In this document: piece by piece, positions 21,337 through 39,119 of the stretch | Layout of the letters: each line of letters begins with the position of its first letter | How positions within the stretch are numbered: the stretch's first letter is position 1 | NCBI GenBank assembly: GCA_005885125.1 | Contig: VAXU01000034.1 | Span: 1-51,498, forward strand | Reading direction: 5' to 3' | Source: Actinomycetota bacterium | GTDB taxonomy: Bacteria > Actinomycetota > Thermoleophilia > Gaiellales > Gaiellaceae | DNA length: 51,498 nt | Made by a program: the position numbers and the translations under genes | The notes under the pieces: generated by a model | What the model saw: only the letters and a program-made list of their open reading frames with translations | Told to the model about the DNA's origin: nothing | Database searches by the model: none

Positions 21337-22021
21337 CATCCCGACGCTCAACTGGGACGAAGCGTTGCTTCGACTCGCGCTCGCTGCGGTGCTCGGAGGA
21401 GCGATCGGGATCGAGCGAGAGCTCCGCGAGCGCGAGGCCGGCCTGCGCACGCACCTGCTCGTCTCCGTCGGCTCGGCGTTGTTCACGATCGTGTCGGCGT
21501 ACGGCTTTCACGACTTCCTCACGTCGGGGCAGGGCGTCATCCGCGCCGACCCGACACGGATCGCCGCGCAGATCGTGACCGGCATCGGCTTCCTCGGCGC
21601 CGGCGCGATCATCCGTCAAGGACTGACCATCCGTGGGCTGACGACGGCCGCCACGTTGTGGGTCGTCGCGGCGGTCGGGCTCGCTGCGGGAGCCGGCTAC
21701 TACAGCGGCGCGGTGATCACGACGGCGCTCGTGCTCTTTGCGCTCTATCCGCTGCGCATCATGGCGTACCGGTACATCCGGCGGTTTCGTCCGGAAGATG
21801 GTCGCCTGCTCGTGGAGCTGCCCGCCGGCGAGAGCCCCGGCAACGTGATCGACGAGGTCGAACGCGCCGGCGCCCGGCTCGAAGCGATCGAGGTGAGCGA
21901 GGAAGGCGACCGGCGCCGGCTCGAGCTCGACGTCACGCTGCCGCCTGGGACGCAGGTACCGGCGCTCGTGGCCCGGATCGCGGACGTCGTTCAGGTCACC
22001 GGAGTGCGGTGGGCCGAATAA
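21329..22021 (+). CDS. MgtC/SapB family membrane protein
   Basis: A 230-residue protein with four to five membrane helices (about residues 10-140), containing [38 protein letters not shown] and [16 protein letters not shown], then a soluble ACT-like C-terminal domain ([19 protein letters not shown]). MgtC-type proteins modulate ATP synthase or ion balance; the role here is unknown. GTG 21329 lies inside the rph end. Its position between rph and rdgB is unusual, since those two usually adjoin. Confidence 0.88.
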
Positions 22022-22483
22022 GAGCGCGCTTGTGCTCGCGGAACGAGCACAAGGCGCGCGAGCTCGAGGCCCTCCTGCCCGGCTGGACGATCGAGCTCCT
22101 CGAAGCGGAGGAGTTCCCGCCCGAAGAGGGGGCGACGTGGCGGCCATCCCGGCGTCCACTCGTCCCGGAGCGCTGCCGGTGACGAGGTCGGCTGGCTGCT
22201 GCGCGCGCTGGAGGGGATCGGCGGGGACGGCCGCCGCGCCCGCTACGTCTGCGAGCTGGTCGCCGTGTCGCCCTCGGGCGAGGAGTTCCGAGGCAGTGGC
22301 ACGCTCGAGGGTCGCATTGCGGAAGTGCAACGAGGGGTCGAGGGCTTTGGGTTCGACCCGATCTTCATCCCGGACGGGGAGAAGCGCACCGTCGCAGAGC
22401 TCGGCAACGGGTGGAAGTCGAAGAACTCCCATCGTGCGCGCGCCGCCCGCGCGTTGCTCGAGGCGTTACGCGAGGCCCGGTAG
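22009..22483 (+). pseudogene. rdgB: RdgB/HAM1 dITP/XTP pyrophosphatase, broken by an internal deletion with frameshift
   Basis: The N-terminal part reads from GTG 22009 (LCSRNEHKARELEALLPGW to PPEEGAT, about 22137). The frame then becomes nonsense, while another frame (from about 22139) gives the family's second half: GGHPGVHSSRS, GDEVGWLLRALEG, YVCELVAVSP, GFGFDPIFIPDG and SHRARAARALLEAL, ending at 22483. Missing are roughly 33 residues carrying the ENAxxKA helix and the catalytic DDSGLEVDAL-type loop. The enzyme removes non-canonical purine nucleotides, so this copy should be dead. The 3' end overlaps the convergent yihY gene by 18 bases. Confidence 0.85.
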
Positions 22484-35544: not shown

Positions 35545-35936
35545 GCCAGATCGCCCAGTACCGCGGCACCGGCAAGCGAAAGACGTCGGTCGCGCGCGTG
35601 ATCCTTCGCCCGGGGACAGGCGCGACGTGGTTCAACGGCCGTACGATCGAGGAGTACTTCCCTCGCGCGACCCATCGCACGTCGGCGCTGGCGCCGCTCA
35701 AGATCGCCGAGGCGGAGGGAACGTACGACATCCGCGTACGCGTCCACGGGGGTGGACCATCGGGGCAGGCAGGCGCAGTGCGTCACGGGATCGCCCGTGC
35801 GCTCGTCGAGGCAGATCCGGAGCTGCGTGTGCCGCTGAAGCGTGCCGGCTTCCTGACGCGCGATGCGCGCCAGGTGGAGCGTAAGAAGGCCGGCCTTCAC
35901 AAGGCGCGCAAGGCGCCGCAATTCAGCAAGCGCTGA
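35541..35936 (+). CDS. rpsI: 30S ribosomal protein S9
   Basis: A 131-residue small-subunit protein: [19 protein letters not shown] at the start, [20 protein letters not shown] in the middle and the basic tail ending APQFSKR whose C-terminal arginine reaches the P-site tRNA. It starts at GTG 35541 within the rplM end. Confidence 0.97.
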
Positions 35937-35948
35937 GCGTTTTCTCGC

Positions 35949-35954
35949 TAGGGT
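35949..35954 (+). promoter_or_regulatory. -10 box TAGGGT (leaderless type) for glmM
   Basis: TAGGGT eight bases before GTG 35963, in the short spacer after rpsI. Confidence 0.55.
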
Positions 35955-35962
35955 CGCGCGTC

Positions 35963-37225
35963 GTGGCCCGTCGCTACTTCGGAACCGACGGCGTTCGCGG
36001 CATCGTCGGGGCAGATCTGACTCCCGAGCTGGTGGAGAGTCTCGGGCGCGCGAGCGCGTACTGGTCCGGCGGCGGGAGGATCTTCGTCGGGCGCGACACG
36101 CGCGCGTCCGGCGTCGAGCTGGAGGAAGTGCTCGCACGCGGCATCGCGTCCGCCGGCGGCAACGCTGTCGTTGCCGGCGTCCTCCCGACTCCCGCCGTGG
36201 CGCTGTTGACGCTCGACCTCGGCTGCGTCATCACCGCATCGCACAATCCGCCCGAGTACAACGGGGTCAAGTTCTTCGACCGCGACGGGCAGAAGCTGTC
36301 GGATGCGTCAGAGGAGGAGCTCGAGGCGCTGTTCGACCGCGCGCCCATCGGCGGCGGCACGGTGGATCGCGTCGACGTCGCGACGGACAGCTACCTCGAG
36401 CACGTCGTCGAGCGCTTCGGGTCCGATCTCGCGAGGCTGCACGTCGTCGTGGACTGCGCGAACGGCGCGTACTCCGGCCTGGCGCCTGCGGCCTTCGAAC
36501 AGCTCGGTGCGCGCACGACGACGATTGGGGACGCACCCGACGGGACGAACATCAACGTCGGCTGCGGCGCGACCGACCTCCGTGCGTTGCAACAGACCGT
36601 GCTGCGGGTCGGCGCAGACCTCGGTGTCGCGTTCGACGGCGACGGCGACCGGATGCTCGCCGTCGACAACAACGGCGACGCACTCGACGGGGACCAGATC
36701 GTCGCGATCCTCGCGCTCCATCGTGGCGTCGATCTCGTCGCAGTCACGTCGATGTCCAACCTCGGCTTTCACCGCTTGATGGCAGATCACGGAGTTCGCG
36801 TCGTCACGACCGACGTCGGCGACCGTTACGTGATCGAGGCGCTGCGCCGCGAGGGCGGAATCCTCGGCGGTGAGCAATCAGGACACATCATCTGGCTCGA
36901 CGGTCACGTCACGGGCGACGGTCTCGCGGCGGCGCTGCTCTTGTGCGCCGCGGTCGACGGACGTACGCTCGCCGAGGCTGCCACGGTCATGCCGAAGTTT
37001 CCGCAGGTGAAGGAGAACGTGCCGGTGAGCCGCAAGGAGTTGACCGATCCGATCCGCGCCGAGGTCGAGCGCGTGAACGCGGAGCTGGGCACGAGCGGCC
37101 GCGTGCTGGTGCGGCCGTCCGGCACGGAACCGGTCGTTCGCGTCCTCGCCGAGGCCGAGACCGAGGAAGGGGCGACGGCCCTCTGTGGTAGGATCGCGGC
37201 TCTCGTTCGACGAGAGCTCGGCTGA
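35963..37225 (+). CDS. glmM: Phosphoglucosamine mutase
   Basis: A 420-residue mutase converting glucosamine-6-phosphate to glucosamine-1-phosphate for UDP-GlcNAc. RYFGTDGVRGIVG opens domain 1, the phosphoserine is in VITASHNPPEYNGVKFF, the metal loop is AFDGDGDRML, the sugar loop GGEQSGHII and the phosphate loop VRPSGTEPVVRV. Somewhat shorter than the 445 residues of E. coli, but every domain is present. Its product pathway continues from the neighbouring glmS. Confidence 0.95.
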   Translation: MARRYFGTDGVRGIVGADLTPELVESLGRASAYWSGGGRIFVGRDTRASGVELEEVLARGIASAGGNAVVAGVLPTPAVALLTLDLGCVITASHNPPEYNGVKFFDRDGQKLSDASEEELEALFDRAPIGGGTVDRVDVATDSYLEHVVERFGSDLARLHVVVDCANGAYSGLAPAAFEQLGARTTTIGDAPDGTNINVGCGATDLRALQQTVLRVGADLGVAFDGDGDRMLAVDNNGDALDGDQIVAILALHRGVDLVAVTSMSNLGFHRLMADHGVRVVTTDVGDRYVIEALRREGGILGGEQSGHIIWLDGHVTGDGLAAALLLCAAVDGRTLAEAATVMPKFPQVKENVPVSRKELTDPIRAEVERVNAELGTSGRVLVRPSGTEPVVRVLAEAETEEGATALCGRIAALVRRELG

Positions 37226-37361: not shown

Positions 37362-39119
37362 GTGTGCGGGATCATCGGATACGTCGGGACGCGTGAAGCG
37401 AAGCCGCTGCTCCTCCGAGGGCTGGAGCGCCTCGAGTACCGCGGCTACGACTCGGCCGGGATCGCGCTGCGCGAGGACGACGAGCTGGACTATGTCCGTG
37501 CAGTCGGCAACCTGCAGTTTCTGAAAGACGCCGCAGGCTCGAACGGCTCGCGTTCTCAACACGGCCTCGGACACACGCGCTGGGCGACGCACGGCGCCGT
37601 CAACGAGCAGAACGCGCATCCGCTCACCGGCTGCGACGACGGCCGGCTGGCGATCGTGCTGAACGGCATCGTCGAGAACTACCGCGAGTTGAAGGAGTCT
37701 CTGCAGGCCGACGGTCATACGTTCAGCTCGGAAACCGACGCCGAAGTCGTCGTGCATCTGATCGAGCGACACTACGACGGCGACTTGATCGAGGCGGTCC
37801 GCACGGCGTACGAAGAGCTCGAGGGCCACTTCGCGTTCGTCGTCATCCATCACGACCATCCGGCCCTGCTCGTCGGCGCCCGGCGGCAGTGCCCGCTCGT
37901 CGTCGGTGTCGGCGAAGGAGAGATGTTCCTCGCGTCTTCGATCGCTGCGTTTCTGGGCGAGACGCGCCGCGTCCAGCTGATCGACAACGGCGAGGTCGTC
38001 GCGATCACACCCGAGGGCGCCCGCTTCTTCAACGGCGACGGCGAGATCGAGCACAAGGAGATCGAGCCGGTCGACTGGGACGAGGAAGGCGCAGAGAAGG
38101 GCGGTTACGAGACGTGGATGCTCAAGGAGATCTACGAGCAGCCGGAAGCGGTGAGCGAGACGATCGGCGATCGAGCGCGTCGCGGCAAGCTCGTGCTCGA
38201 GGGGATCGGGCTCTCCGAGCTCGAGATCCAGAATCTGCGCAGGATCGTGATCGTCGCCTGCGGGACCGCGTACCACTCGGGCGTCGTCAACCCGGTGCTC
38301 TCGAAGGACACGCTCGTGATCGGGATCTCCCAGTCCGGCGAGACGGCTGACACGCTCGCCGCGATGGACCTCGCTCGGGAGTCGGGCGCTCACACGCTCG
38401 CCATCACGAACATGATGGGCACGCAGATCACGCGTGACACAGACGCGGTCCTGTACACGCGCTGTGGCCTCGAGGTGTGCGTCGCGGCGACGAAGACATT
38501 CACGGCCCAAGTCGCGCTTCTCTCGCTGCTCGCGCTCAAGCTGGCGCAGATCCGGAAGACGCTGCCCGAGGAGGAGATCGAGTTCATCCTCGAGGCGCTG
38601 TACGACCTGCCCGAGAAGATGGAGCAGTTCCTCGACGGTGACCACCCGATCGAGGAGATCGCGCGGCGCTATTACGACAAGCCGTTCTTCCTCTACCTGG
38701 GCCGCCACATCGGGCTGCCTGTGGCGCTCGAGGGGGCGCTGAAGCTGAAGGAGATCTCGTACATCCCGACGGAGGCGTACTCGGCCGGCGAGATGAAGCA
38801 CGGGCCGATCGCCCTGCTCGACGCGGACACGCCCGTGGTCGTCGTCGCGACCGACCAGAAGACCGTCTACGACAAGGTCGTCTCGAACATCCAGGAGGTT
38901 CGCGCGCGCGGCGCGCACGTGATCGCGATCGCGACGGACGGGAACGAGGACATCCAGCACCACGCAGACGACGTCATCTACATCCCGCGGACGCCGGCGT
39001 TCCTCCAGGCAGTGCTCGCGGTGATGCCGCTGCAGCTGCTCGCCTACAGGATCGCGCGGCTACGCGGGCTGAACGTCGACCAGCCGCGCAATCTGGCGAA
39101 GACCGTCACCGTCGAGTAG
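37362..39119 (+). CDS. glmS: Glucosamine-fructose-6-phosphate aminotransferase, with an internal gap in the SIS domain
   Basis: Makes glucosamine-6-phosphate from fructose-6-phosphate and glutamine. The N-terminal glutaminase is complete (catalytic Cys in MCGIIGYVG, then TRWATHG and NGIVENY). In the isomerase part, ACGTAYHSGVV joins directly to NPVLSKDTLVIGISQSGETADTL, so about 24 residues of the first SIS domain (the region of ASEFRYR in E. coli) are absent, in frame, near 38287. The total of 585 residues against 609 fits exactly one such loss. The end DQPRNLAKTVTVE is normal. As read, the fold of the essential synthase domain should be damaged. Confidence 0.92.
   Translation: MCGIIGYVGTREAKPLLLRGLERLEYRGYDSAGIALREDDELDYVRAVGNLQFLKDAAGSNGSRSQHGLGHTRWATHGAVNEQNAHPLTGCDDGRLAIVLNGIVENYRELKESLQADGHTFSSETDAEVVVHLIERHYDGDLIEAVRTAYEELEGHFAFVVIHHDHPALLVGARRQCPLVVGVGEGEMFLASSIAAFLGETRRVQLIDNGEVVAITPEGARFFNGDGEIEHKEIEPVDWDEEGAEKGGYETWMLKEIYEQPEAVSETIGDRARRGKLVLEGIGLSELEIQNLRRIVIVACGTAYHSGVVNPVLSKDTLVIGISQSGETADTLAAMDLARESGAHTLAITNMMGTQITRDTDAVLYTRCGLEVCVAATKTFTAQVALLSLLALKLAQIRKTLPEEEIEFILEALYDLPEKMEQFLDGDHPIEEIARRYYDKPFFLYLGRHIGLPVALEGALKLKEISYIPTEAYSAGEMKHGPIALLDADTPVVVVATDQKTVYDKVVSNIQEVRARGAHVIAIATDGNEDIQHHADDVIYIPRTPAFLQAVLAVMPLQLLAYRIARLRGLNVDQPRNLAKTVTVE

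What the first reader, a model, noticed from the sequence alone, without database searches (positions are those of the whole stretch)
38270..38300. GlmS misses 24 residues of its first SIS domain
YHSGVV joins NPVLSKD. The length difference from E. coli GlmS (609 against 585) is exactly the gap. The gene is usually essential for wall synthesis, so either the sequence is wrong here or another glmS exists.
Basis: partly seen in the sequence, partly recalled or inferred. Interest (0 to 1): 0.7.

Follow-up and report, generated by a model that had tools for sequence, protein, structure and literature searches.

The report
Assembly deletion inside an ordinary glmS
A 72-base piece is missing from the only glmS gene of this metagenome-assembled soil actinobacterium, and the same kind of clean loss in other conserved genes of the same and sister assemblies shows that this is almost certainly an assembly error, not biology.

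Summary
The glmS at 37362-39119 (+) encodes 585 aa and lacks exactly 24 residues (72 bp) between V309 and N310 (junction 38288/38289). All 76 related GTDB loci that cover the spot have the full segment, all nine congeners do, and the junction occurs in 1 of 399 genomes of the class, this one only. No second glmS is held in the genome (77% complete), and the segment is nowhere else in it. The rest of the gene is under normal constraint. The best reading is a local misassembly. The same window has a second clean deletion (101 bp at 22138/22139) that frameshifts rdgB, the only copy found. A third (119 bp) frameshifts murQ on contig C92. Sister MAGs show the same kind of unique, sharp deletions: 44 bp in another congener's glmS, 127 bp in a guaB, 65 and 116 bp elsewhere. 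Only one of these seven lengths is a multiple of three, and a sister genome from another study has none in 100 kb. The segment holds the end of the first SIS-domain helix and the next strand, so a protein without it should not work. Not a real biological feature; read mapping would settle it.

The parts
37362..39119 (+). glmS, glutamine--fructose-6-phosphate transaminase (isomerizing), 585 codons plus stop, lacking 24 internal codons
38288..38289 (+). Junction of the 72-bp deletion (V309/N310); one base of microhomology (C) relative to congeners
35963..37225 (+). glmM, phosphoglucosamine mutase, immediately upstream, collinear with congeners and without a gap; the usual glmM-glmS neighbourhood
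22021..22468 (+). rdgB/HAM1 (XTP/dITP diphosphatase), broken: the N-terminal part reads in one frame, the C-terminal part in another
22138..22139 (+). Junction of a second clean deletion, 101 bp, removing the YYENA...GEDSGIEVDGL core of rdgB and shifting its frame

Best explanation
The missing 72 bp are a local assembly error (a false join inside a contig of a short-read metagenome-assembled genome). The living cell most likely has an ordinary intact GlmS of about 609 aa, which makes glucosamine-6-phosphate from fructose-6-phosphate and glutamine. Shown here: the deletion is unique to this assembly, has almost no microhomology, is one of three clean 72-119 bp losses in conserved genes of this assembly, and such losses recur in sister assemblies without regard to reading frame. 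Inferred: that the reads would contradict the join.
For: (1) The 72-bp segment is present in every relative that covers the site: 9 congeners, 76/76 GTDB loci. (2) The same window has a second clean deletion, 101 bp at 22138/22139, which frameshifts rdgB and removes its DSGIEVDGL core; it is the only rdgB match in the held genome and scores below the family cut-off. (3) A third, 119 bp, frameshifts murQ on contig C92; six congeners have those 119 bp. C92 was opened because of its GlmS-like gene, not in a search for deletions. (4) Scanning the syntenic contigs of eight congeners found the same kind of unique sharp losses: 44 bp in the glmS of G005, 127 bp in a gene read as guaB and 116 bp in a redox-protein-like gene of G002, 65 bp at a gene end in G006; none in 100 kb of G007, which comes from a different study. 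(5) Only 1 of these 7 lengths is a multiple of 3, as expected without selection on frame. (6) The rest of glmS shows no decay: open frame and only 3 unique substitutions at 353 otherwise invariant sites. (7) Chen et al. 2020 (PMC7111523) state that local assembly errors propagate incorrect protein-coding genes into databases and suspect they are most prominent in IDBA-UD assemblies; the sister MAGs with isolate names AC_nn carry sample names matching the Angelo grassland study, whose metagenomes were assembled mainly with IDBA-UD from 250-bp reads (PMC6784897).
Against: The glmS deletion itself keeps the frame, which chance gives one time in three. The window's own accession, assembler and reads are not available here, so that it belongs to the same study is a guess. 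Several sister assemblies of the same series (G001, G004, G008, G009) show no such event in the compared stretch.
Confidence: 0.93

Rival explanations
1. The deletion is real and recent, and the gene is a null allele in that strain, which then depends on external amino sugars or on another route to glucosamine-6-phosphate.
For: An intact frame after a deletion would be compatible with a very recent event; the held genome has a stand-alone SIS protein (C92, 361 aa, best NCBIfam match NagB-II glucosamine-6-phosphate deaminase, below cut-off) beside murQ and an ABC-transporter ATPase, that is, amino-sugar salvage genes.
Against: It would need three independent recent losses in conserved genes of one genome, each clean and of similar size; congeners with intact glmS carry related stand-alone SIS genes, so this is not a compensating gain; murQ beside it is itself broken in the same way.
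Confidence: 0.04
2. The shortened GlmS is a natural functional variant with a reduced first SIS domain.
For: The frame is open; both substrate-loop motifs flanking the deletion (ACGTAYH and SQSGETADT) are kept; the other residues are conserved.
Against: No relative lacks the segment; 13 of its 24 positions are invariant in 76 loci. In a model of the intact relative the segment is the C-terminal half of helix 301-318 plus strand 322-326; in the model of the window protein that helix is absent, confidence at residues 301-310 is 33 and over 446-484 it falls below 50.
Confidence: 0.02
3. A second, intact glmS exists in the organism and this copy is a decaying paralogue.
For: The genome is 77% complete, so a gene could be missing from it.
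Against: The gene sits in the conserved glmM-glmS place, congeners have one full glmS each in the listed matches, and it shows no accelerated change.
Confidence: 0.01

Closest known systems
GlmS, glutamine--fructose-6-phosphate transaminase (isomerizing), NCBIfam TIGR01135 / PRK00331
   Same: Full-length match in one frame, 710.9 bits against a cut-off of 418.05; class II glutamine amidotransferase domain plus two SIS domains; next to glmM.
   Different: 24 residues of the first SIS domain are absent (profile positions 309-333).
Local assembly errors of short-read metagenome assemblies as described by Chen et al. 2020 (PMC7111523)
   Same: Unsupported joins inside contigs that yield incomplete or incorrect protein-coding genes; suspected by those authors to be most prominent in IDBA-UD assemblies.
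   Different: Their diagnosis rests on read support, which could not be examined here; ours rests on comparison with relatives and on frame statistics.

Membership tests
GlmS (TIGR01135) | Profile score over the curated cut-off | tested here: met
   710.9 bits against 418.05
GlmS (TIGR01135) | N-terminal Cys (CGI) glutaminase domain | tested here: met
   Starts (V/M)CGIIGYVG, aligned without gaps to congeners
GlmS (TIGR01135) | Complete first SIS domain | tested here: not met
   Profile positions 309-333 have no counterpart; 72 bp missing relative to all congeners. Attributed to the assembly, not to the organism.
GlmS (TIGR01135) | Enzyme activity | not testable with these tools
   Needs expression and assay
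Local assembly error | Difference unique to one assembly and absent from relatives | tested here: met
Local assembly error | Recurrence in the same assembly without respect for reading frame | tested here: met
   72, 101 and 119 bp in glmS, rdgB and murQ
Local assembly error | Junction not supported by reads | not testable with these tools

The most novel reading that the evidence does not exclude
The deletion is real, and the bacterium lives with a GlmS whose first SIS domain lacks the end of its first helix and its second strand, either inactive (amino-sugar auxotrophy) or active in a reduced form.
Probability: 0.05. Interest if true: 0.4.

Novelty: not a real feature. Interest (0 to 1): 0.06.

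Why it matters
It matters only as a caution: clean losses of 40-130 bp inside conserved genes occur in these soil MAGs, and about a third of them will keep the reading frame and look like real protein variants. Comparing lengths of deletions modulo three across one assembly is a quick test for this.

Tried and rejected
Second glmS in the genome: none over the cut-off; the other matches are a NagB-II-like SIS protein (C92), a protein read as PurF from its sequence (C72) and weaker amidotransferase or SIS proteins. Missing segment elsewhere in the genome: only chance-level hits. Natural short homologues: none. Pseudogene decay: no excess of unusual substitutions. Repeat-mediated collapse: only one base of microhomology at the junction. 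glmS ribozyme or other RNA feature: no Rfam match in the window. A gap in glmM: none against congeners. Base rate at protein level: among 80 glmS and 73 glmM loci of relatives no other internal gap of 8 or more residues was flagged, although this screen missed the 44-bp loss near the start of the G005 gene. Literature on glmS in-frame deletions: nothing relevant.

Full report
Observation. The gene at 37362-39119 (+) is glmS: 585 aa, GTG start, no internal stop, directly after glmM (35963-37225). The TIGR01135 profile matches in two abutting pieces, positions 1-308 and 334-607, over the curated cut-off together. Alignment with congeners shows one clean gap of 72 nt, 24 codons, between bases 38288 and 38289, with one base of microhomology; the missing residues in relatives are GRYIIEEWARVPVEPDIASEWRYR or close to it.

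Is it natural? The window lies in a 2.83-Mb, 195-contig genome of 77% estimated completeness, whose relatives are uncultured Gaiellaceae / Thermoleophilia MAGs, mainly from soil. All nine congeners and the other family members with a full gene carry the segment. Of 80 GTDB loci, 76 cover the site and all 76 have all 24 residues, 13 of them invariant. A degenerate pattern for the junction peptide YH-x-GVV-NPV was found in one of 399 genomes of the class, this one.

Is there another glmS, or decay? No other match in the genome reaches the glmS cut-off, and a query with the intact segment finds only the two flanks here. The nearest other gene is a stand-alone SIS protein on C92, closest to NagB-II-type glucosamine-6-phosphate deaminase but below its cut-off. 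The window protein has 3 unique substitutions at 353 sites invariant in the other ten full-length genus and family sequences, among the fewest of the set, so the gene is not decaying.

The telling comparison. Aligning the window with syntenic contigs of eight congeners shows a second clean deletion, 101 bp at 22138/22139. It falls in rdgB/HAM1, removes the core with the DSGIEVDGL motif and shifts the frame: the N-terminal part reads in one frame and the C-terminal part in another, exactly at the junction. It is the only rdgB match in the genome and scores below the family cut-off. On contig C92, opened for its SIS gene, the neighbouring murQ lacks 119 bp that six congeners have, again with a frameshift. 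So three clean losses of 72, 101 and 119 bp hit conserved genes in the small part of this assembly that was examined.

Sister assemblies show the same. G005 lacks 44 bp near the start of its own glmS, which all eight others have; G002 lacks 127 bp in a gene whose translation I read as guaB, and 116 bp in a gene that looks like a small redox protein; G006 lacks 65 bp spanning a gene end and the next start. Each is unique to one genome and sharp. No event of this kind was seen in 100 kb of G007, which comes from another study. Of the seven lengths (72, 101, 119, 127, 116, 44, 65) only one is a multiple of three. Real indels in essential genes would nearly all keep the frame; this set looks unselected.

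Literature. Chen et al. 2020 (PMC7111523) state that uncorrected local assembly errors put incomplete or incorrect protein-coding genes into databases, and suspect them to be most prominent in IDBA-UD assemblies. The study whose sample names match the AC_nn sister MAGs (PMC6784897) assembled 250-bp paired reads mostly with IDBA-UD and reports correcting scaffolding errors afterwards. Whether the window's assembly is from that study is not known.

What the deletion would do if real. In an AlphaFold2 model of the closest intact relative (L052, mean pLDDT 77) the missing residues 310-333 are the C-terminal half of helix 301-318, strand 322-326 and the link to the next strand. In the model of the window protein the helix is not formed, mean pLDDT is 33 at residues 301-310, and the stretch 446-484, which contains the conserved EGALKLKEISYIPTEAYSAGEMKHG motif, drops below 50. 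These are shallow-alignment models and only indicate that the first SIS domain would be damaged.

Conclusion. Reads are needed for proof.

Noticed in passing
window 22021-22468, junction 22138/22139: rdgB/HAM1 gene broken by a clean 101-bp loss with frameshift; it is the only copy found in the genome.
   Followed up: yes
L003 around 766/767 (G000 contig C92, about 16412): murQ (N-acetylmuramic acid 6-phosphate etherase) lacks 119 bp present in six congeners and is frameshifted; it lies near a NagB-II-like SIS gene and an ABC-transporter ATPase gene, a probable amino-sugar salvage cluster.
   Followed up: yes
G005 contig C17 about 21108 (L152; GTDB record VAXY01000022.1, locus L077): The glmS of another congener lacks 44 bp near its start, present in all eight other genomes compared.
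   Followed up: yes
L149 position 18708 (G002 contig C54) and L150 position 15646 (G002 contig C54, about 35646): Clean losses of 127 bp in a gene read as guaB and of 116 bp in a redox-protein-like gene, unique to this assembly.
   Followed up: partly
L147 position 10623 (G006 contig C20): Clean loss of 65 bp spanning the end of one gene and the start of the next (start of the second reads like acpS).
   Followed up: partly
window 35934-35963 and about 47020: Intergenic stretches before glmM and near 47 kb carry 100-165 bp insertions in G008 and G009 that other congeners lack, perhaps small mobile or repeat elements.
   Followed up: no
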